Part shown: piece after piece, positions 16,019 to 59,204 of the stretch | Layout: every line of letters starts with the position of its first letter | Position numbering within the stretch: position 1 is the first letter of the stretch | Assembly: GCF_000699445.3 (NCBI RefSeq) | Contig: NC_067198.1 | Coordinates: 38,477,523 to 38,541,522 of the forward strand | DNA from: Schistosoma haematobium | Lineage: Eukaryota; Platyhelminthes; Trematoda; Strigeidida; Schistosomatidae | Length of the DNA: 64,000 nt | Direction: 5' to 3' | Position numbers and translations under genes: made by a program | Notes under the pieces: model-generated | Seen by the model: the letters and a program-made list of their open reading frames with translations, nothing else | What the model was told of the DNA's origin: nothing | Databases searched by the model: none

Positions 16019-16026
16019 TATATAAG
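16019..16026 (+). promoter_or_regulatory. TATA box of micro-exon gene A
   Basis: TATATAAG, starting 48 nt before the gene A start codon. Gene B has TATATAAA 47 nt before its start codon, so spacing is conserved. The implied cap site lies about 25-30 nt downstream, giving a very short 5' leader. Confidence 0.65.
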
Positions 16027-16066
16027 TTAAAGAACAGAAAGTTTAGTACATCGTCTGTGTAACACA

Positions 16067-16136
16067 ATGAAATCATCTGGCACAATGTGTTTGGCAATCT
16101 TCTATCTTATGAATTTGCTTGCCATATTTTCTGACG
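16067..16136 (+). CDS. Gene A exon 1 (signal peptide)
   Basis: 70 bp from ATG to a gtgagtcg donor. Encodes MKSSGTMCLA through LLAIFSD, a hydrophobic signal peptide, and leaves one base (G) for a phase-1 junction. Gene B exon 1 has the same length, phase and opening residues, which supports the start. Confidence 0.8.
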
Positions 16137-19100
16137 GTGAGTCGAAAAGATGTTATAGTTATAATATTATAGTGACATTTAAAAATGTTACTCTGTTCTA
16201 TATTAGTTTTACCATAGTACCACTAAACTCGTAAAGAGTTTATGTAACGCGAAATTGTACTAATATCGATCAGTCAAAATCAAATTCCAGGTCAGGTGAA
16301 AGATGAATTTCAGGCGGCTAGTTTCACCAACGTTTTCTTCCACTTCTCATTTATATACGGTGATGCTTTTCCCTTGTAATTACCAGTGCAATTTGCTTAC
16401 ATATTTTTCGAAACAATATTTTCAATCATGTCAAGTTATTACATTTCACGTTTGGAAATGTAGACAAAACCTTTCTGTAATAGTACGATATTATGGGAAG
16501 AGTAATTTATGATTTTGCTGAAGGTTAAAAGTCACTAAAAAGACATAGAGCACATCAGTAATAGGTTATTGAGAAGAGTCAATTAACGTTAGTCAAAGTT
16601 TAATTGAGAAAACCATTTATGTTGTGTTGTTTAATGATAAACTCTTGGATTTTACGAAAAATACCAAGCCATTTCTTTTTATGCTTCAAACGTAATGGGA
16701 CTTTCGAAGTTCAGGAATAGATGTACTTTGCAGGATCCAAGTCTGTAGATAGTATCAGTTAATATTATTCGACAAGTTGAATGCACGTTTTAAGCGGTAT
16801 CTAATACATCGACTATTCTTTCATCATATTCACACATGAAAGCAACGAGCATAAATTCTAAGAAGATAATAATAACAATTTTAATTCCTGTCTGAAATGA
16901 ATAATTTGAATAAACGCACCAAAATAAATGAAGCGCAACTTCAGCTCAAAATCTGATTGTTTTGAGAATGTCCATGAATATCGTTTATTGAAAAGTACCT
17001 GATATTTGAAAACTACAAGCGCATTAAACCCTTCACGAGTCATTATAATAAATATATAGTATGAACTCATTCAAATGAACTCATTTAAATTACTAGGTGC
17101 TGAATGGGGTGAGTCAGTTTACAGTTGTTCTAGTTGCGATCGCATATGAACACCACACAGCCTCATCTCTTATGCTGATTATTTGATATCTTTATCGAAT
17201 AACATTTGCTTGTCTCAGATACATAAAACGCTAATGCGAACTATAACCCGAATGTCCATCATTTAATGCTTAAATGTTGTTGATCAGAACTAAATAAAAC
17301 CTAATCTGTTTCTTATAACGAGATGTTATCAGTTTGATTGAGTATGAGAGTTTTTAAAATTTAAATTATTTTTATGTAATATAAGAAGTAAAAACTAAGC
17401 TACGTTATATTGGCAATGTGCTTTTGCCAGTACTATTTGAATTCCTCTTTATGGGATATCAGCATATTCTACTCATTTCCTGTCAATCACCCGACACATT
17501 TCATAGAATAGAGACTGATTTCACATTATGAGATGGAATCGAAGTCAAACTGTTTTCTATTGATAGAAATCTATAATTAAAAATTCATTAATCAAAATAC
17601 ATCAACGTCTTCATTGAACGTTTTTTTTTAAGTTATCACATGTAACAGTAAGCTGAAACATTTTGAAATGATTTTCATTATTTTACTTTGAATTATTTAC
17701 ATTTAAAAGGTGAAGTTTGAATATGAGATACAATAAGCTTCTGGTAAATGCTTTGAGCTAAGAGAAATAAAACGTGCTGAAAAATATATGACCTTAATGT
17801 TTCGTTCATTTGGTGTTGTTTTACTTGTATATTACTGGCTGACGAGTCCCATATAGGACGAAACGAGCGTCCTAGATTCCACTGCTAGCCACTATTCATC
17901 TTTGTTTAATGTTTAGTATAAATGTATTTTAATTATTTTTGTTAAGTGTGTAGTTGTGATTTATTAAGACTAAACAATGATGTGAATGTTATATGAAGGT
18001 TTATATATGATGTAGAACTTCATTAAGACAGTAAGTATTTCATGCCACACTACTGACACATTTATTTGTTTTGATTCACTATAGCTGTCCTGTGCTGACC
18101 ACTTAGAATATATGAATAAGTCGTTATATTCTGATATAATTGGTAACATGAAACATTGCGAATCCATAAATTATCATGTTTTCAATGATAAATCACATTG
18201 TTAATTTGAAGTGTGAATTACATATTTGTGTCTGACAGGAACAACGTGTTGTGGTATGTGTAATTTATACTACTTTTAATTTTTTAAGTATGTAAACATT
18301 AAACTGATTGTTTAATGAGTGTTTTTGAAGTGTTAACTATTTCTGGGCTGTGGTAATCTACGAAAATACACGTCTTAGAATGGAAATGAATAAAAATGGG
18401 AACAACAAACTGATGCAAGAGTTTGAGTGCAATCAAATTTAAGTCTATTTCAGTTCTAATAGTATCAGAACTTAAATAATATGAATTTATGTTCATCTCA
18501 ATACAATCACTTATTGTGAAAATGTATTATGCTATTTCAGAGGTGTATTTTACTAGTCATACATAATATACGAATAAGTTTATCTAGATTATATCGAATG
18601 TTTAATTTTATGACTCTGAAAAGGATATAAAAACAGTATGTTTGCTTGGGTTACATCATCAAACCAGAACGAATAAACCATTTGTTAGGTATATGACACC
18701 CTTATTTTAAGCTAAATATACCATAGTCAGTAATCAATATGCAAATATTCCTATTTGGCAACCACTACAATTTCATATGACAGAACAACATGTGTATACC
18801 GGTAACTAAATTCAAGAGATAATTCTCGACTTTTTCATTGTAAACCGAAGCTAGAATTGTATAAAAATGTTCGGTGTTCAATGAATATCACTAATTTCAA
18901 TACAGTTTCACAATTCTGGAAGTTGACTTGTGTTAGAAATGTAGATAAGTGGATATTAGCTCAGTCTTCCAGAGATTCAGTGCTAGCTGCGAGTTTCTAT
19001 CTGATTGAGGCTGGTAAATGTACACATCCGAGATATTCTATTCAGTGACTCGACAACTTGCAAATACCTCTAGATTTTCAATAGTGTTAATTAACTTTGT

Positions 19101-22100
19101 AAACGTATCGTTTCTATCATAGTGTATTCATTCAAATTCACCTAGCTACTCAGATCATGCTATTCAGTTGAATAAGATACTTCAGTATTTACAAGGCTGT
19201 ACAACCTATTTCTTATATCAAGAAAAGTTTCCCAATATTTTATTTGGTTGCATCAAAATGAGTGATTATTAGAAAATAGAGGAAATAAATATCGATGATG
19301 TACAACAATTGCTTATGAGAAAAAATATACTAATCATCAGGATGACAAACAGATCATTAACTTCATCATAGATGTGTAGTGACTCACATTTATCACGAGA
19401 ACACGACTGGTTTAATAAAAACAATTATTATTATAACCAACTGTACCAGTGCTTGTTTTAATGTGCTTTTGTTTGACTGTGCTAATGACAGCTATATTGT
19501 ACTTCCATTCTTCTTCTTACATTTTGATTGTGACTTCGCGCGAATTCGGCTACGTTCTGTAACCAAGCTTGTATCCTGGCACGATCTCGGTATCCTTTCG
19601 ATACCACGAGATTGCCAGCAAATATATCTCGACTTGGTCCATTAACTGCCTTCTGGTATTTGGCTTCTCGGGGATTTTATGGGTTTCTTTGGTTACGTTC
19701 AACCTACGCCTTCTGATCTACTTGGCACGTGTTTCTTGGTAGCGGTGTTCATAGTTAATCACGACTCGACGCCACGCTACAGATGGATATATTATTAAGT
19801 ACTACTAAAAATAAAACAATGAGTAGGTTATTTTACTGAATATTAATGAGTAATTATGAAAGCTAGCCATAATACTAAGTTATTCTACAAAGACCAACTC
19901 TCAAACATTTTAAAGACTAGAGGAATCTAACCATTGATAATGAATTTCTTTTCTCTGTTTTATAATTAATCACCATACATTTTCATGAATATAATATTCA
20001 TTACTTTACCACTTCTATAATAGACGAAGATGGAAACTGTAAGTAATCAGTAGTTACATTATTGTGCATAGTAATTTATTACAGCGTAACTCAACTGATT
20101 AGAGTTATAATTTACAATGATATTACTGTTGACTGTTTGTTTGATTATTAATGTAGCTAAGATATGTTGTGGTACGTCAATTACATTTTTATATACATTA
20201 AGAATTTATTTGTGATTAACTAACAAGTTGACTTCTTTATGACAAATCACTGTTCATTTTGTCCGGTCAAATAGATGTAGTGACTACAAAAGTAAAATAC
20301 GTCTTTAACAAAGCTGATGAATGAATCCTCTAGTCTAAGATAAACAAGTTATAAGTAAATGTCCTCTCTATTCTATCTTAGTCGGGAATAAATAAGATAA
20401 GATTGTTGGGATTTACACCACTATGATACATCAACTTACTATTCTATTATAAAGTTGGTAAAGATTAATTTACGAAATATATCAGTATTCACATTCCAAT
20501 AACGTGATGCTAAATGACATTTACCATTGAAAAAAAGCCCATAATTTAAAATCATTTATTTTAGAATTAATTATCGTTTTGGTTCCATCTTATTCAATGA
20601 CTTCAGGATCTTCAGTTATTTACCTGGAGTTTCAATGAAGCTAGATATATGTATTTGTCTGACGTTGTATGCTATCTGGTTATACACATGATTTGGTTTC
20701 TGTAAACGAAAATACATTAAAAACACACAAGACTGTACGAACGTGATTAATTTGATGATTATTGTTTTGTGGATGAACTTTTTTATGGTGATTTTCACTT
20801 ACGTTTTTTCTTCTTTAGTCGGTAATGATTGTAAGGGTAAGTTGTATCCAAGTTTCACGCAAACAGATACCTATCTTGCTTTCTAAATGAATTTAAGCCA
20901 TTTTAGAATGATTGAACCATAATTTATATTAGTGTTTTGCTTTTATTTATTCTTTATCAATCATGCTAGTACGAATCGGACAGAACTGTTCTTTATTATT
21001 ATAAATTGATTTGTAGTGGATGGTCTTATGTCGAGCCCACATAACTTATAATAGCCTTCTGACAAGCCAGTTTACTCATTCTACTTAAGCTACATTTTGA
21101 CCTTGTTAATTAACTGCTTATCAACCTTAAATGTTTTTGTATGAGCGTATGTGTATGCACTTCTTATCCTATTCATTATATGTCTGTAACTTGTTTTTGT
21201 GTGACTATAAATATTGACTCACGCTTAATTCAACCGAGTTAGCTCACACGCCTTCTCCACTGCATGTCTTTTCGTCTTACTTCGCTCTCTGTTCTTCGCC
21301 TCATTCGCTGCGATTCTCTGATTGTGTGTTCAAATCAACGAGTGTACAAAGTATACATATTCAAACATCCATTCTCATATTCGACTCATTCAATTACGTT
21401 ATTCACTAACGCGGATTAAGTCGATAACTATATATGAGGATTGACGATATGTAATATTATCGATAACAATCATTCATACGATCACATTGAAGTCAGATAT
21501 CTAATCAATAGATTATCACAGGCAATTTATTAAGTACCACCACTTGATTGTCAATATATTTTCCGTGTACAGCTTTATTAAGCGGAATTGAATCAAACTT
21601 CAACTAATGTAATAACATTAGAAAACTTTCAGTTTTTGTTATGAAGTATCAATTTGAATCTTAGTGATAAATTAATATTTACTTGTTTACATAATTCGAC
21701 ATTTTAGATGTCAGAAGTAAGCTTGGCATTATGAAATAAAATAAATTGATATCAGCTACGTGTTTGTTTGCCTTTGAATTCCAAACAAGCCATTTTTAAT
21801 CAACAATCAATATTGCATTATGGAGATATTTCCTGCCAAATACTAAACTTGATTCAAGGATTTTGTACTGTATTGGATTAATAATGTTAGGCTACTATCA
21901 GGTTTATCACGAAATAACTAGAAACATTCAGTATCATTGGTGTATTGATAAGATATTTCAGACTAAGTCATAACATACGCTTAACTGTGTAGAATGTCTA
22001 CTGATTACCTGTACAAGTACTACTGAGACTGTTGCAAATTATATTAAATATGATCATTATAAAACTTAATTGATAAATGTGTGTTTAAATTCAACTTATA

Positions 22101-25100
22101 TCTATCTACTTCTAACAATCTGTTTATTTATTTGTATTATCATCTCAGAACCAAGACGTATGTTCGGTACTCTGTTTACAAATTATTTTCTTAAAAGATG
22201 TTTCAAATACTTTCAGTGATTTCAAATATGTCGCTCTTATCCTTTATTTCTTGTTTAGTTTTAAACTTTTTTGTTGTTGTTGAAAGAAACCTTAATTTTT
22301 ATAATTATATTATTTAAACACATAAACATTGGTACAAGGAGGCAGCAAATAGATATGCACCATATAAACCATCCAATTTGTGTAAGAGCTAGGATACTGG
22401 CGGGGTACCCAAACCGAAGCAGGTCGTTTTTTTCAGGGGACCATACCCGGAGCATTTGACCTGAACGTCTGATCCACAAGGCAGTGGAGCAACGCAAGGA
22501 GATGCAGTCCCATGGTAGCCGGTAACCAACAATTGGTTCATAAGCCATTTTTCCTTCAGGGTCCTGGAGCCCATGTGCACCATTGGTTTGGAATCAAGGT
22601 TTTTCAACTCCCCTAGTTAACCCTCCGTGTCCACCAACCCGGTTAAACAACCAAAAATTCGCTTTTCGTACTCTCAATTTCATAAACAACACTCCCGCCA
22701 CGAGAAGACAGTGAGTAGGACTTCCCTGGTAGTGGTTGTATTCACGTGGTCATGTGAGAGCATTTCAAGGAGGAGAGCTGACTCTTCCCACTTTCGGTCA
22801 TATCAGGGCATTTGGGGCATTTGATTACGAATAAGTATCTAATAAAATACATTGCATTTTTTATATGTTTCTAATAAACTTTTAGTTATTCCAGTAAATA
22901 GAGTTTTCATGTTTTACTTCAATCTTCGACTCTAACCATATAGGCTCTGGAGAAGATTATCTCGATTTATGTAAGAACATATTACTTTTCCTTTCATATA
23001 TTTTAGTCAATAAGTTTGGTTGTTTTTATTTTTCAGAAATTAAGTGTCAGTATAAGTAAAAACTGGAGTTTAGGACAAAGTATTTGAAAGGAAACGATCT
23101 TTGGAAGTAAAATTACTCTTACATTACTGAAAATTTGTTGATAAACAAGTCAATTTAAGATGGAAAATAGATAGACATATTTGGAAGTTTAGGTGATTAG
23201 TTGATCGATTATTCGTGGATGAAAGCGCATTCAGATTGTCGTTTAAATGAAATTCAGTGGTAATTGCTTCACTGAATCGGACGTGAGTGAGGTCATTTGC
23301 AGCTGGTTTTATGACTTCGTTCTCATTTATTTGATAAATAACGTGAAAATTTATTACAAAATTTCAAGTATAAAGTTTTTAAAAAAATATTTCGATGAAT
23401 TATGGATTGCATGATATGTAGTTATTCGGTAGCATTTGTTTTAGAGGTCGTACTATTTTATAAGTACCCATCAAATTTGTTGATCACGTTGTAAGATAGT
23501 CACCAGTGAATGTGAATTTTCTATATTGAGATGTTTAGAGAGTACAGTTAGTTCGTAACAATCAGATGTCTCAATCTAAATCAATTTATGATAGTGATTT
23601 CTACTTTGCTCAAAATATTTGGCATGCTTCGTAAAGAAAATGTGCACAGGAAATGACAAAGTGAGTATTCACAATGGGAATCTTTATTATTCTAAAAAGT
23701 GAGTATCGCTTAGATTTCCTTCAAGCACCTGATATCTACTAATGTGTCAAAATGCATAAACTAGCAGTCACTTGTGCTAGGTTTGAAGCTATCATGAGTT
23801 CACTTAATCTGCGAACGAGAACAAAGACTCAATGACCAAAGACCAGTAAACTAGCTATTGATGTGTCCCAGCCCCGCTAACTAGAGGGAATGGGAAAGTA
23901 TATTCTGCAAACAGTGAGAAACGAGCGATCCACAAACACAATTCAAATGTATATATATCAATTATATGTATATAATCGATATTACCATGGAAGTATTTCC
24001 AAACATTTAATTGATGAGTTAGTCAATCGACTGCCATAAAAATATTTAAATTTAATCGATAAGAATAGTTTAGTTAATTAACAATTATACGGTAAAATAT
24101 ACGTATAGTATTGGTCCACAAATGGATCCCAAAAATTACCACTCATTATTCTTATCGGGGCATAACAACTTGATCTATAAAATTTGATCAGAGATTATAA
24201 CAAGACGACATGAAATTAGCTAATACTGGGTAATTAACTAGCATGAAGTTGTGATCAGCAGTCATTTTACACTGGATCAAGGTTTCATGCTATTCGGCTC
24301 GTAACCAAAACTTACCTGTATTATCTAGTCAAATGATATACACTGAATAATTCGATCTCAAGTACCCTCATTCATATCACATATTTATTCTTGACATCTT
24401 AAAACAGACCGGAGAAAACTTGGGATGGGTAAGTCTTATGCCATATAACTCTATTCATATAATGTATATTTAAAAATATGATTTCACAAGTACAAATTAA
24501 TATAATTTATATTGAATTCGTTCCGTATTTTAAAACTCCGTGATCTCTTCAAATTCATGAATAACATTTACCGTACAAAGGTAACATTTAGTAAACGACA
24601 TCATCTAGTTAACTTCAGAGAGCGAATACAGAATATATGCTCTAGGGGTGGTACCATATACTAAAAATGGTTAGATTGTTCATCATGTTATTTTGCAAGA
24701 CTAATATCTGTAAAATTTGGTGTTGATCTCTTGTTTTATCCTTCACTGATTAATAGTTATTTAGTATTGTCAGTAGATAAAACAATAGTAAACAAAATAC
24801 ATACTAGACTTAATGACATTAAAAGTATTTACTACCATAAATCAACGTTCCATTCTTCTATACTAAAATACGTCAGACTTACTTGTAATGATAGGTAGAG
24901 TTAATTCAAACATCACAAAGGTTTCTTGACTGTATGGAATAAATCACAAGTATTTCTGAGTGACTTATTCGTGAATAATATCTCGACTACCGTTTCTGTG
25001 TTTGGTGAATAACAGGTATTTCATTAGTGAAGATTAAATAATATTGAGATGATTAATATTAAACCAACTATAGTTTGTTTATACCTTGCCTAAAATATTT

Positions 25101-25919: not shown

Positions 25920-26234
25920 AAATGAAGAAATTAATCAGAAACATTTTCGTTTTGATTCGAGTGTTGGCAACCAAATATCAAAAATGATTGTTAAGCAAAC
26001 TTTACTGATGTCAGATTCATGTGGTAAATGATTCTTATAATTTGTGGTTGGTCACATAGATATCGTAAACGATTAATGGTCAATTTATACATTTTCTTTT
26101 GCTTTATATTTCGATATCGGAAGTATTTTAAGTCAGACTAGATGGTACATAATTTAAAACTATTGACTAATTTAACATCGCAATGGTGTTAAAAATGTTC
26201 ACTTTGTGTTCTTGTATTTCAATAAGCGTTATTC

Positions 26235-26240
26235 ATTAAA
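26235..26240 (+). terminator. Candidate poly(A) signal of gene A
   Basis: ATTAAA about 315 bases after the stop codon. Chosen by position only. Confidence 0.25.
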
Positions 26241-26364
26241 TGAAATATTGAATATAATTAATCACATGATTCTTCGCTCGGACATTCAATGTCAGTACAC
26301 AGTCAACCATGAACCCATGTGTAAAATTATTTAACCAGAACTTACAACGGATACCTGAATTAAG

Positions 26365-26574: not shown

Positions 26575-26770
26575 GGACGCAGGTAAATCCAGCTGACGAG
26601 TCCCAAATAGAACGAAGTGCGCATCAAACTGGTTTCCACTGCTAGACACTATCCATCTTTGCTTAAAAAGCTTGTGACTTGAGGCTATGTCGAGGCAATG
26701 CTCAAAGGATGCACATATGTCAAGATGAGAGTGATCAATTACAGTCCTAAATAAAAAGCAAAACAACACC
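26575..26770 (+). repeat. Degenerate hammerhead repeat (right arm)
   Basis: CTGACGAGTCCC at 26593, but stem II GGAC is GAAC and GAAA is GAAG, and the cleavage triplet is ATC. The Sm-alpha tail TTCCACTGCTAGACACT... and AAAAAGCTTGTGACTT follow. Probably inactive. Confidence 0.75.
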
Positions 26771-31290: not shown

Positions 31291-32637
31291 AAACATCTTG
31301 CTGAACGAAAACGTTTGTTCCAAAACAGAACAAAAGTTCTCATGAATTTCAATGAGTTATATTTCAGCAGTTACTCGGTCAATAGAAAAATATCCATTTG
31401 AACATATCTCAGTCAACTGTTACGATGATAAGCTTTTGTGAACTTTGCATAATGTGATAAATAATAAATGTTTCATTTAAAATCATCATGCAAATTTTTT
31501 GCTTCTTTATGACTTTTTTCCAGAAGATGCTAGTGAATGGGAGAAAAAGATTTGTTTAATTGGCTGTTTCAGAAATGTATAAGATGAATAACAACAATTT
31601 AACTTGTATTTATCACGAGATCTTGCATGTATGACATGGTAAATGATAATCTGTCATGATTCAGCATTCGAAAAATTCAAATGAATTATATTAAAGAAAT
31701 ATCTATCACCTGAATTCACACTAGAATCTACGAACTGGAATGTAAGGATGTTCTTTAACGATATGAACGACTTCTACATAATCTCAGAGATTCAGTCATG
31801 CACATACTTTAGTCTGTGAAACCCATGGGTGATGATCTATTTAAAAGCACCAATGATTATGTTAGTATGACCATATACATAGGCTTGCTGATGAGTTTTC
31901 CTCTAAAGTCATTTCATTGATTGACAAATTGAAAATTATTTGTCGAATGATCGAATAATTCTGTAAACCTGATATCAATATGTCAATGGAGAAATGGGTT
32001 CACTTTATGTATGTATGCTCCACAAACATTATTCTGAGGATATAGGTTAAGAAGTGGTAAAGCTTACTAGTAGTTCCATATTCTAAAAAGATTAAGATGA
32101 AAAATGACCTTTTAATTTACACAGTACTATTAATAACTGGATTTTTGTTGATCATAACGTGTTTGTGTTACGAGTGAATTACACTCATGGTAACAGAATG
32201 TAAAACCAGTTAGTAAAATTGGTCATTTACAGATTAAAAGATTACAGGAGGCTTATCAATAAATATACATATTAACTATTGATTCGAGTCTTTTCACGCA
32301 TTCCAGTTGTTTGTTGAGCTACGTAATTAAATTAACTTCAGACGCATCATTTCAAAAAGTTTAAATCGAGTGAAGAGAACTTACTTTTAAATTTGTTACC
32401 TTGGTAAGATTTTAATGAATTATGAATAGTTAGTATGAAGTTTACCTAAGCGAAATGGTTTAATCTTACTAAAGACAGATAACCATCTGTATTTCGCGAA
32501 GAATGTATGTTAAGAATGGTGAAAATTTCGTTTTATTTTTCATCTCAATAAAAACACCTAGTTATTATGTACTTTATGGTTTAAATTGTTTTTTTTCTGA
32601 TTGACATTGTTTAACAAAGTTGTTTTCTACGGGTTAG
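31291..32637. other. AT-rich intergenic DNA, nothing seen
   Basis: No ORF, RNA or recognisable repeat supported. Confidence 0.4.
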
Positions 32638-49600: not shown

Positions 49601-52600
49601 TATTTTCACCATGATTCATGGTGTAATATGTTAAGTGTATGCAGCCTACATCTGTGTAAAGTTAATGAAGTATCTGTCTTCCAGGAATAGGATAAATCTC
49701 TTAGGGTTTCTCTATTTCATTATAGCTGAGATCTTTTTTCCATATAGGAAAATAGTGAATTGTCAAGGTTAAAGTAATTGTCGTTTACGCACGAATATTC
49801 TGGGTAAAACAAGTAAAGCTATATAATCTCTTTTGTAATCGATTAACAAATTCGTTCTTTTTTAAAATTAGAGATTAGTTATACCATTGTTGTTTAAAAG
49901 TATTATGGAAATGCACTTGAGTTAACTTAAAAGATTAATTTGACTACATTGTGACATTTGGCGCATACGATAAGAAAACAGAAATTATAACTTACAATTA
50001 CTAAAGTCTAATTTAAGGAAGTGTTTGGGAAAATTCATCCATTTGAATGTTCATCAGGTCTTATCTTTGATTAAAAAAACTGACGATAACTAAATTCCTT
50101 CAGAAATAAAGAAAAATTACCTAGTTCCTTACCTTGTAGGGGTAGGCAAACAGTCTTCGAAGATACGATAGTCTAGCATAAACTCCAACTTCATTTGGTA
50201 CTCACCAAAATGTTTCTTCATCTACGTTTATTAGGGGATACATGAGACCTTCTCTACAATCTTTAAAATCTCATGAAGTCCTCAGAAAAAATTCTTTATG
50301 AACATTGAATTTAGTGGAGATAATACTTCAGAAATTTTGAATAAAATCGACAGACGGCATCTTTGAGAAAGTTTTTCATAGCTCTAAGCTTTTCATCCCA
50401 TTTTCAGTGATCTTCGACACACTAAAGATGAACACCTGTATCAGATAAAATCAACGTGCCTTTACATGTTTTATTGCTCTTGTCTAATAGATTACATTAC
50501 TCACACATACTTCAGTATTTAAACATCTCGATAACCCTCGTCATCTTGCATCCTCAGATAAATAATTTCAAATTATGTGTACTGTCAAACGGTTTGGTTC
50601 GAAAAAAACACATTAATTACTTGAATGGATTCAGGATCTGTTTATGATTTGTTAAACATTAATCGAAGCGTTTATAACTACGTCAACAGTATTAACTAGT
50701 CAACTTTCTGATTTGCACAACGAGTCCGAGTAAAAAGGCAAGTTTTACAATATCCATTGGTTACGTTAAAATTCATTTATTTCAGTTTAGCTAAATGTCG
50801 TACATTATTTTATTTTGATCATGGTAAATTTTTACCCACACAATTTAGGAAACAATCTTTCCGATTCATTTATCGAATAATTATAAGCAGTGATATTTTG
50901 ATAAGAATTACATTATTTAGTAAGATAGAAATATACTTTACCAAACGTTAATTCATTTGCATGAAATTTTTGTTACAAAAAGAATATATTTGATTTTCGT
51001 CATAAAAAAAGTCCTGGGTTCAAATGTTGCGAAGCGGAATCGTTCATGAGCACTACCGAAGAGTCCCACAATATGACGAAACGGCTGTCCAGTGCTTCCA
51101 GGTTTTCAATGGTGGTCTAGATTCAATGGACTCATGATGTCAACTATTAAAATTACAAAATTGTCCAAAAAAATACTTTCTGATAAAAAAAGTAGTTGAT
51201 TGTTAAATGTATTTTCGACTGACTTATATCCAAATGTAACTGAATTTAGATAGTTAAATTCAAGTAGCTACAAAAACAGAAAATAGTTAGCTTACCCCAT
51301 GGATAATCTGGTTAATGAAAAAAATTTAGCTAAAGATATTTTACGCCCCATCACAAAATCTTACTGATGCAAGCGAAACGTAAACAATGAAATGGTGATA
51401 AATCATAAAATCATTTAGTTATTCAACACATACTGAATAGATTTCTCGATTCGCTTCTAATTTAATCGACACAAATTATAGCGTTTCGATTTAAATTAAT
51501 GGTAAGAAATGAATGTTACTCTGATTCTCACCATGTTACAAGCTGAATCATGCAAATGTTCACCATGTATAACAGCAAGATTGGAATAAATTTTCCACTG
51601 TTGAATATATCAATGATTCTGTTAAATACTCTCCATTTTTAATTCATCCACATACCGTTTTCCTTATTCGGTGAGCAACAAACTGATGTTACACCTGATG
51701 CAATGTACTGGATAAATAATCTGTGTGTTCAAATCATGGATAAAACTCAATAAGTTACCATTTCGAAACAACAAAACAAAGTGTGCTTTATGAAGAGAAA
51801 TGAATCTGTATACTTGTAAATTTTGCTAGCTATCACATATGGTTGTCTACTTCGGATCTACGGATGAGTAAACACAATTGTTTATTTGCTCAAATTATAC
51901 CCACCCTTCATGAATTCAAGTGATTTTCTGCAACTCATAGTTTAGTCTTTTCAGATGCCTTTAAACAAATTTCATAAGATGAATAACTTACTTTTTGGTA
52001 ATCCTGAATAAAGGGAATGTATTTAGTTTAATTTCGTTATATACTGACCGGTACAAATCAGTCACTCATCCCATTTTTACCATGAAACAAGCTGAATTAT
52101 TCAGTAGATTACAATGTGCAATAATGTGAAAAAGTCAAGAATCCACATTCTTAAACTACAATTATACGGCTAAGAATTTCCATTTCCGACTCATCCAAAT
52201 TGTGTTCCGTATCCGGTGAACAACAGATGGATGTTGGACATTGTGAAATGTATATACAAATTGAACTGGATATTCATTCCTTGTTATTCACTTAATATAC
52301 CAATGCTAATAATTAATGGTTCAGATTTGAACTAAATAATATTTTCGTAGGAACAAAATAGTTCGTTTATGATACATAAATCTATTCAATCACGTATGAA
52401 GATTTTACAAACAACCGTTAGTTTATCTAATATTGCACAATCAATATAACATATCTGTTCACTATCCTTAGGAAATCTTAAGATTAACATAACTGAACAA
52501 TCTCAATTTATTATAGTGATAAATGTCCTAAATTAAAACCCAATAAATAACTTACTAGTTTTTTGACCTATTAACATAGAAATTGTTTGGTATGTTCGTT

Positions 52601-55600
52601 AACAAAAAAGTTTAGTGTATTTCGACATTTGGCATGAATGAACAACAACATTGTATAGAAAACAACTATATATTTAATTGAATATTCAACACCTGATTAT
52701 TATTTACCATAAACTGGAAAAGTGTATTAGTTGTTTTTAAATCATTGAAAAGAAATTGAAGGGATTCAATTTGAATCAGTGGTACAATCTTGTTACTGTC
52801 CGGCGAGACTGTAATTTATGGACGAACCAATCACGTATAAGATAACAGGTCTCGAATTTTGGCGCAAAATTCACCCACCTATTTGGATAAATGGAGTTTT
52901 GGCTTTATTGCTGATGTCCATTCTTGATGAAAACCATAAATCTAATTTCTAACCCTAACCTTCAACTGTAAATCATAATTCTAATTCCTCACATAGGTTT
53001 TGCCACTCATTTGGTCCTGGTTATGAAGTGGACACTCACACGGTAAATGATCGTCTATAAATTATAGTCACAATAATAAGCCTTATTAAATTGATGATTC
53101 TGTTAAGTTTTTGTCGTGCTAATTTGGCTAATACTGTTCATTTGTCAATAAACCAAAAGTGAGGTGTTGAACGTGATGGGTCGAATTATATACACCATAT
53201 GAGGACGTAATCCATGTGATTCAATTTTTAACTAGACTCAAACAAATAAATATAAATGTACTCAGAAACATATTTTTCAGAACTAACAGATAATTCAGTA
53301 TTCATAGACGCTTAGCTATATAGTCTTAGTTATTCATTAGCCTGTTTAAGGTCAGAAATGATTACTTGTAAAAAATTTAATTTATCGACTATAATTAAAG
53401 TGTCTTAATGTCAACAAAACAGATAAGGTTGATAGCAATCAGGTGAACTGTTTAGAAATAAAATACATGGGATATGACTTACTTCCTCCAGTATCTGTTT
53501 TTTTAAGGATAATCATTTGGAACGTCGTCACTTATTTTTGTAAATTTTGACGTTAAACAAGGAAAACTGGAAAACTATCACAATGAAATAACCTAATCAA
53601 AATTCAAAGCCCCATAGTAATATACATAACCTTGATCAATTCAAAATTTGACACAAGTTGAACCACAACCATTATAGTTAAGGGCAATAACTTGTCACTG
53701 TTTCAGTTCGCACAGTAAAGCATGGCGAAATGAGAAATTTTTTTGAAGTGCAACATTGTGAAAAGAATAAGAGAATCCATCCTCTAAGACTATAATGATA
53801 CTACTGGGATATCGCTATTTTCAATTCCCTAGAATTTCTTTATTATTCAATAAACAATAAATGTATGGACTACCTCCTTAGTGTTCACCTGATTGTCCTT
53901 TCGTAAACAGGTTTTATATTCATATATAAAATCAAGTTAACTATTATGTATTACTGCATATCTACAAATGAATCACGTATTATTGACTTACTGGTACCGG
54001 CATCTGATAAAACCAAAATATTGGGCTTTATTGATTAGCTACGAGTTTTTTGAATATAACTTGTACTAAAGAAACATGATGGTATCAAGACGAAAATTTG
54101 TTGTCTCATTTACTGTTTCCACGTATTTTGTTAAGTCAATGGAATTGTAAATCCTATACGATTGTGTAGAATGGAATCATTTTCAAACTAAACTTAACCA
54201 TGGTTCCTAACATAATTAATGGATTTGTAATATTATGAGCTCAAAATAATCAGCTCTATGAAGCATTTCAAAACCTTTTAGAGTTCACTACCTTCAAATA
54301 AAGAAAGTATATCTAACTATGATTTGAACACCACTAAGCCAGAAAAACTAATCTAACTTTTGTAAAATCATAACAATATAAGCAAGTGTATTGTAGGGAC
54401 TATGAGGATCCGACTCTTTTGGATCGCGATTATGCATAATTCATTTGATAAAAACTATTTCAACTATTTCAAGGTTTTTTTAAGTAAAGATGGGTAGTGG
54501 CTAGCAGTGGAATCCAGGATGCGCGTTTCGTCCTATATGAGACTTGTCAGCTGGATGTACCTTTATTCAAATAGGACTAAACGCCCGTCTTGGATTCCAC
54601 TGCTAGCCACTATAAATCTTTGCTTAAAAAGCTTGTGACTTAAGGCTTTATCAAGGCAATCCGCTTAGGATGCACATATGCCAAGTGAGTCTTAAATAAC
54701 AATGGGAACATACAAGTAAAATAACACTAAATGAATTTTATTCAAATGTTTATATTAAAAATGAATAGATAGTTTAATGTTCTATAACTATAGTACACTT
54801 ATATTAATAACATTTGATTAACTTACAAATAGGATCTGTAACCATTAGATGGATCACACAGAATACAACTAAACAATCTGTAGTAGATAATTTCATATTG
54901 TTATTTTGATGATTTAGTAAACAGATTATTCTTTCATATATTTATGCTTAATATATGATAGAAAATATAACATTCACATGACAACTAAATGTATAGTTTT
55001 ATTAATCATAAGTGATTTATGTTTATTACTATAATAACTTCATGTCTCTTATCCAATACACACTCACATTCATGTGAATGTTTATCTACTCTGCTGTCAG
55101 GAAACACTTCTATTCGACATTTCATGAGTATATTCCACGTTCATGAACGATAAATATTAATCCAGGTAATTTTTTTCTAATGGGGTTTTGTTCTCTGAGC
55201 TAGATGGTTTGATCGTGAAGCTTTTATCGTTCTTCTAAAAGACATCATCAGCACAAACTTCAGATAGAACTGAAGTGTTCGACTTTCTCCATATGCGTTT
55301 CACAGCTTGTTCTGTACACCTCGATGTTGATTGGTTGTTATTGACCTTAAATTTGTCATTGTTTACTTCTTTGTTTTGGTTGTGTCTCCATTGGTTTGAT
55401 TTTTGTTCCTATATTTGTGCATGATTTTCCTGATTGGTTGATAAATTGGGAAATAAATTGGAAAATCATTTTCAGTCATAGTCAGTCAGCAGAAAACCTC
55501 TTTAAGCGAATTCGTATGGTTCATCTTGAATTTAAGGCGTTAAACATTTTGAAATACAAACAAAACGCTTGCTGAATAACGCACAAACCGCCACAATAGT

Positions 55601-58600
55601 GCGTACGCAGCATTATTGAAATGTATGGTATTTGACAAGAACTCGATAATGTCAACAAGTACGTACTCGAATAATTCGTAATTCGAATGTGTAATGTTGA
55701 GTTCATTATGTAAATATTTCTGTTTGAAAAGCAGACAAATATGTTCATTTCAGTGGTAATATACACAACAAACGTGGATGGTATAACGTCTGATTTTACT
55801 GATTGGTAAAACTCAATAATTAAGTGATTCATAATCTATATAAAATTTTACAGTCTCAAATGAAATCACGATCTATGTGAGTTGAACTGTGATCATTCAG
55901 ACACATTTCCATTATAATTCATCAATGAGATGGTTGTCAAGTAGAAAAACAAACAGGTTACTTGTACTTCTCATTACTTTCTGTAGATCAACTAAACTCA
56001 TGGCGTTGTTGTCTGATGAAACTCTTTATTTTTTAGATGGCCTCAAGATCAATTAAACATGAAATATTGTTTTGAAAATAATGAGGTGTTTGAAAAGCTT
56101 TGTAAAATCCCAGAGGTTCAAGTCTGATTGATAAGTTTTTTGACGTTTGCTCAGATATCTCACACGATTCATTGAGAAACATGAGAAGTAAATGCTTCTT
56201 TTTCAAGTTCATTTGCTACTGGATTTAACATCTACTACTCACACACCTGACATGTCAAACTTATACTATTGCTTATCCTAAGTGAATTCACTGTTTATAT
56301 TTCGATTTAGAATGTAGATCATTTTATTTCTTTTGAATCACCGCTGCATGTGATCACTATTTTAAAGTACATTTAGATGTATGTAATCCTATCAATTTGT
56401 CTTAACGTGTTTCTGTCGATGAAGTGGTATGACCTAAGTTTCTTCTTCATGATGCCATACATAAACATCTTTTAGAGAATGTGTCACTAGTCAAGAGATT
56501 GATAGAACTAATTTGTAATTTATGATGAGGGATTTAAATATCACCAGAATGTAGAGAACAGCTTTTTGCATAACCTGTCATCTCTCACAAAGAATACTTG
56601 TTGAACATGCAAACGACCTCACTGTATGTATGATGGTTTCAACCTCTATATCCCATCGATATGACTGAGATCTTGTCTCGGATGGAACGGCGGTCTGTTG
56701 TTAATCCGAAAACGACAAACTGTTAAATTTGACCTAAGACATGAATTGCCCAGTTATTGAATGAAGTTTACCGTCTGACATACTACATATAGAGGCTGTA
56801 CACTTTCGGCATTAATCGACAGTTAATCCAACGATCTGTCGATTCTTTCAGATCATCTATTATTCTCTACTGTTCTCCATTATACTTTCCCATGCTTTTG
56901 ACAAGATACTTCACTGTATTGAAGAGAGTGCTGAAGGCAGTTAGTAGGGTGTGTGGTGAATCTCTCTTGGTCATTATTAGTACATCTGTGGAAAGACATC
57001 TATAATCTCACACATTAATGACAGGTGTTACCTGATCAGATATTAAACATCAATTTCATTTGCCACTTTCTCCTTGTATATCTTCTGGTATAACGAGACG
57101 GCAATACATAGAAATCCATGCACACACGTAAAATTATAAAAGCCAACTATTACCTCATCTAGCAGATATACCACGTGACAAACAGGTTGCTAGAGCTGAC
57201 GTAGTCGAAAACATATATTCTAAACTTGTTTCTAATTCAAATGTTGTTTAGATTCAAATCTTCCTTAAGAAGAAACATTTCGTTTATTCTATCCAGGTAG
57301 TTTATCTACTAAATTTATGCATGTATTCAGTTATTAGTTTCTCTCACTCCGTTCTCTCTTAGTAAAAGAAGCTTGCTGAAATAACTTGTGCTCAGGATTC
57401 TACATTATGCCGAAAACAAAATATTGAATAAAGTCATTAATAATATGATAAACATTTTTAACGTGGCACACGCTGTGTTTGTGTATGTGAGAGAAGTAAA
57501 CGTTAGATTACTAAAATAACGAATGATTGATATATGAGAACACGTTTACGGATCAATTTTAAAAATTGGATCACATCTACAACACTGATGAAATGACTCA
57601 CCCCAACCATCACCTGTTAATGAAAATGCATTGAATTGTATGAGTCCGATCAATAATTTTACAAAAGGGCTAGTGCAGTGACGGATGAATTCTTTATTTC
57701 ACACCGACCAGTACTTCCTACCAATTGCAGCCTACGATCATCTCCAAATTCAATAAGATTGCCAAATCCTGTTAAACTGAATGTTACGAGTTTAATGAAA
57801 TAATTTCTATCTAGTGGTGCATTGAAATCACCAATTGGTCTAATTTCATGTTTTTGATTTATTTAATAATTATCACACTATTACATGCTGTCATGATTTC
57901 GATATTAGTCCTCTTGATCATTTAATGACCTAAGATTATGTGGAAATACTATTCTCATCATCACTTGTATATATACAAATGTATGTGAAGGAATAACCGT
58001 GTAAAAACATATTAGTTGCGTCTCTTCAAAACAAACGCGTGATGTATTAGTTTGATTTTTTCCGGCATTGAACATTGTAATCGGGTGTAATACCGAAATT
58101 CGAAGAGACGTGATAATTCGGACAAACTACTGATCATATCTTCGTATTCATTAGTTGAAATTGAAAGTGGTTATTCTGTCATTCAAAAAATTTATCACTA
58201 GTCTGTGTTGATTTGCTACATTATTGACTAGACTGAATCCGCAGATTATCCAACACATAATATTTTGTAATGTGGGAAAGATGAATGCAGTAATATCCGT
58301 TTCATCTATTCTGGGTGTGATCAACTCTCTAAGTCTAAATGAACTTTTGTCATGCTGGCACACATCATAATCTCGAATAATCATTTTACTGTCGAAATAT
58401 TACCAACGAGGGGATTTAAACAGTTACAAATCAAATTCAAATGTATAAACACTTCACATTATCAATAACTATAAAAGACGACTATTACGATCGGCAGCTA
58501 GTGGTCGGCTGTTTTCGCTGTTATGAAATGTTTAATCACTGTCTCAGCCAATCGGCGATCGAAACTATGGCTATTGATTTTCTGTGCTTGAAATTGTAGT

Positions 58601-59157
58601 GTGGTGTCGAGTCGCGGTTGACTATGTTCACCACCACATGAATCCTACGTGCCAGTTAACCGATAAGATCTCTCGTAGGTCTAGTATCAGAAGGCACTTG
58701 ATGTTTGTAGTTGAGATGAATTTGTTGGCGATCTCGTGGTATCGACGGAATACCGAGATCGTACCAGGTTACAAGTGTCGTTACTGAGCGTAACCGAGCT
58801 CGTTCAAGGTCACAATCAACGGAAGAATGTATGTATATTTTGGTACAGTTTAACAAACAAGTACAGTAAAACAATCCCTGGTACAATTGGTCATAATAAT
58901 AATAATAATTGTTTCCATTACACCAGTTGCGTTCTCTTGATAAAAGTAGGTCACTACAAGATCATGTGCGTTATAAAATGCGCATATGTTTTCAGTAAAT
59001 CAGTCTTTTCTCGGCAAAATGTAGAGATTAACCTGATCGTTTTAATTATTAGTTTATTATTCTCATCATAATCACTCATAAACTCACAGTTTGAAAATGC
59101 CACAAGAAGTTGTATTATGATGAACAGTGCCAAACTGAATCCACCAAATGACTTCAT
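37627..59157 (-). CDS. Micro-exon gene B, small secreted Cys-rich protein
   Basis: Reconstructed minus-strand gene. Core exons in transcript order: 59157-59088 (70 bp), 57613-57602 (12), 54835-54827 (9), 54003-53992 (12), 53494-53483 (12), 52567-52556 (12), 52003-51992 (12), 51307-51296 (12), 50132-50121 (12), 50007-49996 (12), 49068-49063 (6), 48209-48195 (15), 47787-47776 (12), 47280-47266 (15), 41824-41816 (9), 41694-41680 (15), 41207-41199 (9), 37728-37711 (18), and a tentative last exon from 37637 with TAA at 37629-37627. All internal exons are multiples of three, all junctions phase 1, and the joined frame has no stop (about 94 codons). Product: signal peptide (MKSFG...LLVAFSN) and a mature chain of tetrapeptide-like modules with five Cys. 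MEG architecture; family and function not recognised. Paralogous to gene A. The 3' end is the least certain part. Confidence 0.7.
37711..37728 (-). CDS. Gene B exon 18 (18 bp)
   Basis: aataaatag | ATGAAGGAACCTATTACA | gtaagtattc; reads YEGTYY. Excellent donor. Confidence 0.55.
38089..38524 (+). mobile_element. 436-bp 5'-truncated LINE fragment with TSD
   Basis: Begins GGTTGGAAAAAGCGGAGAGG..., encodes [18 protein letters not shown] and [11 protein letters not shown] (the same C-terminal family as the nested element at 43978-45007), and ends in an AAT repeat. Flanked by ATTCAGCACTC at 38078-38088 and 38525-38535, an 11-bp target-site duplication. Confidence 0.85.
40560..41012 (+). other. Unclassified coding-like stretch in gene B intron
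   Basis: Plus-strand frame open for 113 codons from 40671, preceded by about 37 more open codons across one stop. Polar, no domain recognised. May be a TE remnant or chance. Confidence 0.2.
41199..41207 (-). CDS. Gene B exon 17 (9 bp)
   Basis: ataatattcag | TCATCAGAT | gtaagactc; reads VIR, compare DVR in gene A exon 7. Confidence 0.5.
41680..41694 (-). CDS. Gene B exon 16 (15 bp)
   Basis: atttctaatag | CTAATCATTGTTTTG | gtgagttc; reads ANHCF, a Cys module like VGNDCK of gene A. Confidence 0.6.
41816..41824 (-). CDS. Gene B exon 15 (9 bp)
   Basis: tttgatatcag | ATGACGGTG | gtaagtaatt; reads DDG. First exon after the intron that carries element H. Confidence 0.6.
43978..45007 (+). mobile_element. 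Nested 5'-truncated RT element inside H
   Basis: About 1030 bp inserted into the RT frame of element H, flanked by a 12-bp duplication AATACCGGGAAA (43966-43977 and 45008-45019). Encodes an RT C-terminal part from a related but different LINE ([53 protein letters not shown]), then after one TAG (near 44568) [10 protein letters not shown]...[18 protein letters not shown]. 3' end ACTGACTGACTG. Removing the insert plus one repeat (1042 bp) restores the frame of H. Confidence 0.9.
46264..46292 (+). repeat. TAAG microsatellite at RTE 3' end
   Basis: About five GTAA units (GTAAGTAAGTAAGTAAGTA), typical terminal repeat of RTE-clade elements. Confidence 0.8.
47266..47280 (-). CDS. Gene B exon 14 (15 bp)
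   Basis: catactttacag | AGTTCAGATGTTGCG | gtatgtttc; reads KFRCC. Counterpart of gene A exons reading GTTCC and SKICC. Confidence 0.65.
47776..47787 (-). CDS. Gene B exon 13 (12 bp)
   Basis: gaaacatttcag | TTAGTGAAAGAA | gtaagtaat; reads VSER. Confidence 0.7.
48195..48209 (-). CDS. Gene B exon 12 (15 bp)
   Basis: ctttctttcaacag | ATCTCAGATGTAATG | gtaagttg; reads YLRCN. Excellent splice sites. A nested acceptor would give an 8-bp, out-of-frame exon. Confidence 0.7.
48581..48850. repeat. Intron-block copy a in gene B
   Basis: Best preserved partner of 52062-52350; lies in the intron between the 6-bp and 15-bp exons. Confidence 0.8.
49063..49068 (-). CDS. Gene B exon 11 (6 bp)
   Basis: catctaactcag | TGTTTT | gtaagtgat; reads LF in frame. 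Strong sites on both sides; among the smallest exons proposed here. Confidence 0.5.
49127..49445. repeat. Dispersed repeat, copy 2
   Basis: Partner of 27385-27675 in the same orientation, here in a gene B intron. Confidence 0.6.
49457..49462 (-). CDS. Gene B candidate exon (6 bp), uncertain
   Basis: tatttattttag | TTCTAT | gtatgtcag; would read FL in frame. Sits beside the repeat at 49127-49445, so may be chance. Confidence 0.3.
49996..50007 (-). CDS. Gene B exon 10 (12 bp)
   Basis: ccttaaattag | ACTTTAGTAATT | gtaagttat; reads DFSN. Confidence 0.6.
50121..50132 (-). CDS. Gene B exon 9 (12 bp)
   Basis: cctacccctacaag | GTAAGGAACTAG | gtaattttt; reads GKEL. Strong pyrimidine tract. An overlapping 22-bp alternative ending at the internal gtaagg donor would break frame. 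Confidence 0.55.
   Translation of the reverse strand, partial: VRN
51011..51143 (+). repeat. Hammerhead-like diverged repeat
   Basis: CGAAGAGTCCCACAATATGACGAAACGG..TGTCCAG keeps the stem II / GAAAC / GTC spacing of a hammerhead, but CTGATGA is replaced by CGAAGA. A tail (GCTTCCAGGTTTTCAATGG) differs from Sm-alpha. Probably an inactive relative. Confidence 0.45.
51296..51307 (-). CDS. Gene B exon 8 (12 bp)
   Basis: cattaaccag | ATTATCCATGGG | gtaagcta; reads NYPW. Ends in TGGG like exon 2. Confidence 0.65.
51520..51740. repeat. Intron-block copy c in gene B
   Basis: Diverged copy: CCATGTTACAAGCTGAAT and TCCTTATTCGGTGAGCAACA correspond to positions in copies a and b. Confidence 0.55.
51992..52003 (-). 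CDS. Gene B exon 7 (12 bp)
   Basis: cctttattcag | GATTACCAAAAA | gtaagttatt; reads RLPK. Good acceptor and donor. Confidence 0.7.
52062..52350. repeat. Intron-block copy b in gene B
   Basis: Near-colinear with 48581-48850: GAAACAAGCTGAATTATTCA, ATTACAATGTGCA.TAATGTG, GTGAACAACAGATGGAT, AACTGGATATTCATTCCTTG, CAATGCTAATAATTAATGGT. Lies in the intron before exon 51992-52003. Confidence 0.8.
52556..52567 (-). CDS. Gene B exon 6 (12 bp)
   Basis: tatgttaatag | GTCAAAAAACTA | gtaagttat; reads SQKT. Confidence 0.65.
52708..52713 (-). CDS. Gene B candidate exon (6 bp), uncertain
   Basis: acttttccag | TTTATG | gtaaataat; would add two codons in frame. Good acceptor, weaker donor. Confidence 0.3.
53483..53494 (-). 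CDS. Gene B exon 5 (12 bp)
   Basis: ccttaaaaaaacag | ATACTGGAGGAA | gtaagtcat; reads NTGG. Confidence 0.7.
53690..53900. repeat. Intron-block copy d in gene B
   Basis: Diverged member of the block shared with 52062-52350, 51520-51740 and 48581-48850 (AATCCATCCTCTAAGACTA; TTTATTATTCAATAAACAAT). Confidence 0.5.
53992..54003 (-). CDS. Gene B exon 4 (12 bp)
   Basis: ggttttatcag | ATGCCGGTACCA | gtaagtcaat; reads YAGT after exon 3. Confidence 0.7.
54487..54560 (-). repeat. Degenerate hammerhead repeat, minus copy
   Basis: Minus strand: CTGACAAG (core G8 changed to A), stem II GTC...GGAC, intact GAAAC, ATC cleavage triplet, then CTGGATTCCACTGCTAGCCACT. Nearly complete but with a damaged core. 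Inverted partner of 54565-54690. Confidence 0.8.
54565..54690 (+). repeat. Truncated hammerhead repeat, plus copy
   Basis: Starts CAAATAGGACTAAAC (GAAAC mutated; CTGATGAG missing), then GTC, TTGGATTCCACTGCTAGCCACT and the Sm-alpha tail with AAAAAGCTTGTGACTT. Inactive. Confidence 0.75.
54827..54835 (-). CDS. Gene B exon 3 (9 bp)
   Basis: aatggttacag | ATCCTATTT | gtaagttaatc; reads DPI in phase 1. Confidence 0.6.
55068..55085 (-). CDS. Gene B candidate exon (18 bp), uncertain
   Basis: cagagtag | ATAAACATTCACATGAAT | gtgagtgtg; open in phase 1 (xKHSHE), weak acceptor. Not included in the core chain. Confidence 0.25.
56784..56795 (-). CDS. Gene B candidate exon (12 bp), uncertain
   Basis: agtgtacag | CCTCTATATGTA | gtatgtcag; would read ASIC in frame. 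Good donor, poor pyrimidine tract. Not included in the core chain. Confidence 0.3.
57602..57613 (-). CDS. Gene B exon 2 (12 bp)
   Basis: ttcattaacag | GTGATGGTTGGG | gtgagtcat; reads CDGW in phase 1. Homologue of gene A exon 2. Confidence 0.75.
58500..58905 (-). repeat. Dispersed repeat in gene B intron 1
   Basis: Inverted relative of 19410-19795; an AAT-repeat end at 58892-58906 corresponds to the ATT-rich end of the other copy. Confidence 0.6.
59088..59157 (-). CDS. Gene B exon 1 (signal peptide)
   Basis: 70 bp: [10 protein letters not shown] through LLVAFSN, then one base left before gtgagttt. Same length, phase and opening residues as gene A exon 1. An upstream in-frame ATG exists, but the leader to the TATA box is so short that this ATG is the better start. 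Confidence 0.8.
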
Positions 59158-59196
59158 GCTGCAGTGTCGATGACTCCTAATCTCTTCGTTAAACCA

Positions 59197-59204
59197 TTTA
59201 TATA
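59197..59204 (-). promoter_or_regulatory. TATA box of micro-exon gene B
   Basis: TATATAAA on the minus strand, starting 47 nt before the start codon; gene A has the same arrangement at 48 nt. Confidence 0.65.

What the first reader, a model, noticed from the sequence alone, without database searches (positions are those of the whole stretch)
16019..59204. Two convergent paralogous micro-exon genes
Gene A (+) and gene B (-) share a TATATAA box 47-48 nt before ATG, a 70-bp exon 1 starting MKS(S/F)G, a gtgagt donor, a nearly identical 12-bp exon 2 (GTGCTGAATGGG / GTGATGGTTGGG followed by gtgagtc) and later Cys modules (GTTCC/SKICC versus KFRCC; VGNDCK versus ANHCF; DVR versus VIR). Both mature products have five Cys. 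MEGs are established in schistosomes; this tail-to-tail pair and its exon maps come from reading the sequence.
Basis: partly seen in the sequence, partly recalled or inferred. Interest (0 to 1): 0.92.

Follow-up and report, generated by a model that had tools for sequence, protein, structure and literature searches.

The report
Schistosome micro-exon gene cluster
This stretch of a blood-fluke chromosome holds part of a cluster of micro-exon genes, which build small, probably secreted proteins from many tiny exons; the kind is known, but one gene here appears unannotated and the proposed second gene looks like a decayed remnant next to a different, annotated gene.

Summary
But two genes were merged. 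The Cys modules credited to B belong to a third gene, C (-, 54896-31507): an annotated protein matches it at 118 of 118 residues over 21 exons, 19 of them 6-21 bp. "VIR" lies beyond C's stop. B is best read as a decayed relative of gene E. A has no annotated protein that I found, but a splice model trained on C gives 7 of 7 in-frame candidates in A against 8 of 32 in controls, and paralogs D and E hold homologous cassettes. A, B and C are three of eight leader exons in a 190-kb cluster. The kind, micro-exon genes, is known; the cluster map, A and the decayed B are what is new here. No transcripts were seen.

The parts
15918..16025 (+). Promoter of gene A: block shared with B (15918-15976), TATATAA at 16019
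   Evidence: blastn A/B 78% over 59 bp, E 1e-6; TATA
16067..16136 (+). Gene A exon 1, 70 bp, hydrophobic leader, phase 1
   Evidence: identical in the copy A'
17097..17108 (+). Gene A exon 2, 12 bp (AEW)
   Evidence: homologous to B exon 2 (39) and E exon 2 (27); C-trained score 14.6
17633..17647 (+).
   Evidence: C-trained scan; E has an ITCN exon in the same order, pair score 18, though E's RN exon scores 20 with it; identical in A'
18239..18253 (+). Gene A micro-exon, 15 bp (TTCC)
   Evidence: E TYCC 23, D TVCC 22; one synonymous change in A'; C-trained score only 11.4
20024..20038 (+). Gene A micro-exon, 15 bp (EDGN)
   Evidence: C-trained score 15.1; identical in A'; no D or E match of 15 or more
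20157..20171 (+). Gene A micro-exon, 15 bp (KICC)
   Evidence: weak splice score 7.0 but D HPLCC score 31; identical in A'
20819..20836 (+). Gene A micro-exon, 18 bp (GNDCK)
   Evidence: score 18.5; E KGGCD score 15; identical in A'
21708..21716 (+). Gene A micro-exon, 9 bp (VR)
   Evidence: score 15.0; identical in A'; no D or E match of 15 or more
22149..22157 (+). Gene A micro-exon, 9 bp (PR)
   Evidence: D PS score 23, E RN score 19, but E TYCC also 19; identical in A'
22944..23059 (+). Unresolved 3' end of gene A: possible 27-bp exon 22944-22970 and possible last exon 23037-23059
   Evidence: 24/27 and 18/23 identical in A', where the stop is not shared
59157..59204 (-). B promoter and 5' leader region, TATATAA at 59204
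59088..59157 (-). B exon 1, 70 bp
57602..57613 (-). B exon 2, 12 bp (DGW)
   Evidence: E exon 2 score 59
56342..56356 (-). B counterpart of E's ITCN exon, 13/15 identical, weak donor
   Evidence: score 56, 0 of 295 random segments reach it; not found by the splice scan
54940..54981 (-). C promoter region: TCATGTGA element and TATA-like box
54827..54896 (-). Gene C exon 1, 70 bp, leader
   Evidence: P0121 mapped 118/118
53992..54003 (-). C micro-exon 12 bp (AGT)
53483..53494 (-). C micro-exon 12 bp (TGG)
52556..52567 (-). C micro-exon 12 bp (QKT)
51992..52003 (-). C micro-exon 12 bp (LPK), used in S. intercalatum P0123, skipped in P0121
51296..51307 (-). C micro-exon 12 bp (YPW)
49996..50007 (-). 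C micro-exon 12 bp (FSN)
49063..49068 (-). C micro-exon 6 bp (LF)
48195..48209 (-). C micro-exon 15 bp (LRCN)
47776..47787 (-). C micro-exon 12 bp (SER)
47266..47280 (-).
   Evidence: E TYCC score 42
41816..41824 (-). C micro-exon 9 bp (DG)
41680..41694 (-).
40447..40455 (-). C micro-exon 9 bp (YN)
40303..40317 (-). C micro-exon 15 bp (GSFI)
38805..38822 (-). C micro-exon 18 bp (SFYTG)
37711..37728 (-). C micro-exon 18 bp (EGTYY)
34152..34172 (-). C micro-exon 21 bp (PKIRMM)
33483..33503 (-). C micro-exon 21 bp (GLINST)
32385..32399 (-). C micro-exon 15 bp (NKFK)
32068..32082 (-). C micro-exon 15 bp (YGTT)
31507..31529 (-). C last coding exon, 23 bp, TAA

Best explanation
The window holds the left part of a cluster of micro-exon genes on an S. 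haematobium chromosome. Gene C is a micro-exon gene of 21 or more exons, and gene A is a shorter paralog, without a found annotation, that faces it tail to tail. Both have a TATA-type promoter of shared descent, open with a 70-bp leader exon for secretion, and continue as strings of 6-21 bp exons that begin and end in the same phase, so any of them can be skipped without breaking frame and the number of Cys cassettes can vary. B is a decayed relative of gene E: its promoter, exon 1 and exon 2 look intact, a third exon has a weak donor, and no later exons are recognisable before C's promoter. Shown: DNA anatomy, the match of C to a public protein, paralogy, segmental duplication. Inferred: secretion, alternative splicing, any host-facing role.
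For: P0121 (S. haematobium, unnamed protein product) maps at 118/118 residues plus stop to 21 exons on the minus strand. Of the four other proteins threaded on C's 22 exons, P0123 (103 of 107) and P0124 (74 of 77 after trimming both ends) fit well with other exon subsets; P0122 (72 of 114) and P0125 (57 of 78) fit too poorly for their exon use to count. Mature Cys number 2 to 5 in the 7 relatives. P0124 carries the leader of the copy C'. A: C-trained splice model 7/7, 11/12 and 13/18 in frame at three thresholds versus 8/32, 18/60 and 31/107 in controls, p 4e-4, 1e-4 and 8e-4. Of 13 A features checked in A', exon 1 and eight micro-exons (17097, 17633, 18239, 20024, 20157, 20819, 21708, 22149) keep length, AG (the micro-exons) and GT, with one synonymous change. 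Exon homology of A with D and E. B: exon 2 scores 59 with E; ITCN counterpart at 56356 and E-like DNA at 55868-55822; one in-frame candidate in 4.2 kb.
Against: No RNA data were seen, nor the evidence behind the annotation of P0121. A's 3' end is unresolved and differs in A'; of the 13 A features, 18784 was not found in A', 18624, 22944 and 23037 changed. No annotated protein for A or B was found. Direct A-C collinearity of cassettes is not significant (p = 0.17-0.21), nor is C-D (p = 0.11); some off-order pairs score as high as the ordered ones (A ITCN with E RN 20, with E ITCN 18). E's in-frame share is no better than on its antisense strand (9/22 against 6/12). C and C' exons are no better conserved than their flanks (both 97.0%). 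Six published S. mansoni MEG motifs were absent from all 7 relatives. The model of P0121 has pLDDT 45, uninformative.
Confidence: 0.88

Rival explanations
1. B is not a dead remnant but an alternative 5' end of C: transcripts start at B, use B exons 1-2 and run into C's cassettes, either skipping C exon 1 or entering it at an internal acceptor (54835) that would give a 9-bp in-frame exon.
For: B's promoter and exons 1-2 look intact, on the same strand, 4.3 kb upstream; all phases fit; the internal acceptor/donor pair scores 14.4, within the range of C's exons (10.2-21.2 leave-one-out).
Against: No protein with B's leader among the 7 hits, although B's leader was in the query; B's exon 3 counterpart has a weak donor.
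Confidence: 0.15
2. One reading: A and B are two complete convergent paralogs, B running from 59204 to VIR at 26354.
For: Shared promoter, exon 1 and exon 2.
Against: C's promoter, exon 1 and stop (31507) lie inside B's supposed span and account for its Cys exons; VIR is beyond the stop.
Confidence: 0.03
3. A is also a decayed copy, its exons kept only because the duplication giving A' is recent.
For: A and A' are nearly identical in flanks too (1054 of 1079 around exon 1 and the eight kept micro-exons), so conservation between them is weak evidence; unresolved 3' end.
Against: C-trained scan; D and E keep matching cassettes (scores of 15 or more) for six of the eight at greater divergence.
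Confidence: 0.15

Closest known systems
Schistosome micro-exon genes (MEGs), as reviewed for S. mansoni (PMC10526429; section 5 part 1 and section 19 read)
   Same: Many symmetric micro-exons, long introns, leader at the N terminus, clusters on some chromosomes, retroelements close by
   Different: None of six published S. mansoni motifs found in 7 relatives; S. mansoni family number not determined
Tandem MEG family on Chr6 of the tapeworm Hymenolepis microstoma (PMC7653826; section 9 and passages read)
   Same: Ten MEGs in one region share an N-terminal motif and are read as one expanded family
   Different: Here the copies lie in both orientations with large direct and inverted duplications; other species, other motif

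Membership tests
Micro-exon gene (structural definition, PMC7653826): gene C | At least 7 exons, at least half micro-exons (<70 nt, divisible by 3), a run of at least 4 | tested here: met
   21 exons in the P0121 mapping, 19 consecutive internal exons of 6-21 bp, all divisible by 3
Micro-exon gene (structural definition): gene A | Same | tested here: inconclusive
   Predicted model only: exon 1, eight internal micro-exons divisible by 3, unresolved last exon; no transcript
Micro-exon gene (structural definition): B | Same | tested here: not met
   Two usable exons plus one with a weak donor before C's promoter
Micro-exon gene | Signal peptide in the long 5' exon | tested here: inconclusive
   Hydrophobic core (best 12-residue mean 2.3-3.0, Kyte-Doolittle) in exon 1 of A, B, C; no signal-peptide predictor available
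Micro-exon gene | Protein variation by micro-exon skipping | tested here: inconclusive
   P0121, P0123 and P0124 use different exon subsets, but they are different species or copies; no reads
S. mansoni MEG clades of PMC10526429 | Published linear motifs | tested here: not met
   0 of 6 motifs, written as strict patterns, in 7 relatives
S. mansoni MEG families (numbered) | Orthology to a numbered MEG | not tested

The most novel reading that the evidence does not exclude
The cluster shares parts between genes: B's surviving promoter and leader act as an alternative 5' end for C's cassettes, so one set of micro-exons can be given two different leaders, while the 12-bp exon 2 has been multiplied inside C. 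For the second part: of 45 pairs of 12-bp (one 6-bp) exons tested, QKT scores 32 with E's exon 2, YPW 23 with E's and 24 with B's, LPK 18 with E's, against a 99.9% null of 19.5; but QKT, LPK and YPW do not reach 15 with each other.
Probability: 0.15. Interest if true: 0.55.

Novelty: new member of a known kind. Interest (0 to 1): 0.4.

Why it matters
MEGs are hard to annotate because exons of a few bases escape gene finders. A splice model trained on one gene with an annotated protein picked out the exon string of a paralog for which no annotation was found, and the cluster shows how such genes may grow: a conserved promoter-leader module, homologous Cys cassettes gained and lost, and segmental duplications in a parasite of people. 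It gives exact exon maps to test with long-read cDNA.

Tried and rejected
Rejected: B as a full gene; VIR as an exon; a specific shared E-box: TCAYRTGA occurs 10 times in the window against 8.5 expected, so the shared element rests on its position only; DNA homology of the last exons of A and C (score 23 against a null mean of 28); direct A-C cassette collinearity. The fold of P0121 was too poor to search. Pfam found nothing above its cut-offs in the 7 relatives, and a PDB sequence search with P0121 found nothing.

Corrected: and, for one exon, one search used exon starts off by one or two bases; searches use the right ones. My early coordinate for C exon 1 (54897) was one base off. The threshold-12 control count (8 of 34) was mis-added by me; one search replaces it, with one candidate per acceptor. 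Early splice scans used hand-set weights, chosen after I had seen the sequence; at thresholds 4.5, 5.5 and 6.5 the in-frame counts were 30/49, 21/29 and 16/17 on sense strands against 12/36, 9/23 and 4/13 elsewhere. Matched-null p values are per pair and not corrected. For one search, two of the nine E candidates listed (38594598 and 38573119) were left out by me; all eight D candidates were used; pairs at 19.5 or more were A-E 3 of 56, A-D 3 of 64, D-E 3 of 56, C-E 5 of 140, C-D 3 of 160 and B-E 1 of 7.
Full report
Identity of the window. The window lies at C4:38,477,523-38,541,522 of an assembly of 400,267,458 bp in 163 contigs, on a contig of 48,328,128 bp. The S. haematobium Shae.V3 paper reports 163 scaffolds, 400,271,889 bp (some 4 kb more) and an N50 of 48,328,128 (PMC8846543, section 6 read). 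A retroelement ORF in the window has Schistosoma proteins as its ten best hits, the first at 93% identity (120 of 3515 hits listed), and four type I hammerhead motifs are present.

A and B have TATATAA at 16019 and 59204, 70-bp first exons in phase 1 with gtgagt donors, and 12-bp second exons followed by gtgagtc. A third such unit, C, lies at 54896 on the minus strand. In the scan only these three combine ATG, 70 bp, hydrophobic leader, donor and a TATA box 44-48 nt upstream; simulated sequence gives 0.025 per strand. Local alignments over promoter and exon 1 reach z = 22.6 (A-B), 9.9 (A-C) and 2.4 (B-C).

Gene C. A search with the three leaders and micro-exon pieces found 7 annotated Schistosoma proteins at E <= 10 among 8 candidates, all 7 with C's type of leader. 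P0121 of S. haematobium maps to the minus strand at 118 of 118 residues plus the stop, in 21 exons from 54896 to 31507: a 70-bp exon, 19 internal exons of 6-21 bp and a 23-bp last coding exon, all junctions in phase 1. P0123 of S. intercalatum fits at 103 of 107, uses the extra exon 52003 and skips 51307, 50007, 49068 and 48209. P0124 of S. haematobium fits at 74 of 77 once its first 15 residues and its tail are trimmed; its leader equals that of C', the duplicated copy of C. P0122 and P0125 fit at 72 of 114 and 57 of 78 in a threading without gaps, too poor to read exon use. P0126 and P0127 were not threaded. Thus KFRCC and ANHCF belong to C. VIR at 26354 is 5 kb beyond C's stop.

Gene A. A splice model trained only on 20 C exons was applied to A. 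With one candidate per acceptor, the in-frame, open candidates were 7 of 7, 11 of 12 and 13 of 18 at thresholds 12, 10.5 and 9; in 90.6 kb of control sequence they were 8 of 32, 18 of 60 and 31 of 107; Fisher p = 4e-4, 1e-4 and 8e-4. One of the seven at threshold 12 (23037, 9 bp) lies inside the possible last exon. The exons TTCC and KICC score low (11.4 and 7.0), but homology to D and E supports TTCC, and homology to D supports KICC. Of 13 features checked in the inverted copy A', exon 1, exon 2 and 17633 are identical, TTCC has one synonymous change, and EDGN, KICC, GNDCK, VR and PR are identical. Candidate 18784 was not found in A', 18624 has two changes, 22944 three, and the supposed last exon five with the stop not shared, so these are not claimed. 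No annotated protein of A was found, within limits: shared five-residue words and protein length bounds.

B. Between B's exon 1 and C the C-trained scan gives one in-frame candidate, exon 2 itself (1 of 2, 1 of 2 and 1 of 3 candidates). B's exon 2 matches that of gene E strongly (59), and a counterpart of E's next exon lies at 56356-56342, 13 of 15 identical, with a donor too weak for the scan. E-like DNA is seen again at 55868-55822 (47 bp, 78.7%, E 5e-6). A counterpart of E's TYCC exon could not be shown (26 of 295 random segments score as well). B is best read as a decayed relative of E.

The cluster. In 253 kb including the window (a 699-base gap) I found eight leader exons: A (+38,493,589), C (-38,532,418), B (-38,536,679), D (-38,569,100), E (-38,600,957, 67 bp), F (+38,606,923), A' (-38,640,513) and C' (-38,683,282). 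The scan listed 10 candidates, 3 of them not of this family; the tail scan listed 2, one not of it. A's region is repeated in inverted orientation at 93-97% over 38,491,037-38,500,420 (with small gaps) and at 85.5% over the next 0.7 kb, which holds A's unresolved 3' end; C's body is repeated in direct orientation at 94-96%. E carries DGW, ITCN, TYCC, KGGCD, RN and further candidates, D a comparable array; in F the three candidates listed are copies of two of C's 3' exons and of the VIR-like site (listing at 12.5 or more). At threshold 12 the in-frame shares were D 10/21, E 9/22, F 3/7, A' 7/7 and C' 23/35, against 2/8, 6/12 and 2/6 on the antisense of D, E and F and 4/15 and 5/20 far left, so for E the share alone proves nothing. 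Exon-anchored alignments with flanks give collinear matches for A-E (p = 0.0135), A-D (0.0115), D-E (0.0095) and C-E (0.003), but not C-D (0.11) or A-C (0.17-0.21). Best pairs: D TVCC-E TYCC 49, C FRCC-E TYCC 42, C QKT-E DGW 32, A KICC-D HPLCC 31, A AEW-E DGW 27, against a 99.9% matched-null point of 19.5. A few off-order pairs are high too, such as A ITCN-E RN at 20 and A PR-E TYCC at 19.

How it works. Inferred from MEG biology: the leader directs secretion, and phase-1 exons of 3n bp can be skipped freely, so one gene yields proteins with different numbers of Cys cassettes. The 7 annotated relatives carry 2 to 5 mature Cys. PMC4671649 (section 20 and passages read) describes new MEGs with the signal peptide mostly in the long 5' exon and 26 of 33 micro-exons of MEGs 26-32 symmetrical. 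PMC4350168 (section 9 and passages read) reports MEG clusters in tandem and higher dN/dS in the mature part than in the signal peptide. C and C' exons are no better conserved than their flanks (358/369 and 2541/2620), which fits fast change but is no proof of it. Tissue and function here are unknown.

Standing. The kind is known. The listings of searches and the passages that I read show no description of this cluster; most of those papers I did not open, and the library holds open-licence papers only. DeMarco et al. 2010 is not held.

Noticed in passing
17834-17877 (+) and 54556-54512 (-): Type I hammerhead ribozyme motifs in sense orientation inside introns of genes A and C; by recalled core rules the A copy has an intact CUGA.GA and GAAA core and the C copy differs in CUGA.GA. 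Intronic hammerheads are known from S. mansoni mucin genes (PMC2576457, passages seen).
   Followed up: partly
26587-26634 (+), 51050-51095 (+): Two further hammerhead motifs.
   Followed up: no
42605-46277 (+): Non-LTR retroelement ORFs (RT and DUF6451 above Pfam cut-off, endonuclease just below) in the intron of C between micro-exons 47280 and 41824, antisense to C; an Rfam mir-3492 match (44201-44124, -) lies inside it.
   Followed up: partly
3842-6142 (-), 29623-30629 (+), 35111-35533 (-): LTR-type pol ORFs (RNase H and integrase above Pfam cut-off, RT and protease below); ORFs that look integrase-like by eye only; a weak RT match, E 0.03.
   Followed up: partly
26354 and 26782 (-): AATTCAGGTATCC occurs on both sides of a hammerhead-bearing repeat, like a target-site duplication; the VIR exon of the finding sits on one of them.
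   Followed up: partly
P0126, P0127 (S. haematobium, contig of 50,965,827 bp): Two more annotated proteins with a C-like leader; theirs is not among the eight leaders found in the 253 kb, so the family probably extends further.
   Followed up: no
C4:38,606,923 (+) to about 38,627,000: Leader F followed 20 kb on by copies of C's 3' micro-exons (NKFK, YGTT) from an inverted duplication; no middle exons seen.
   Followed up: partly
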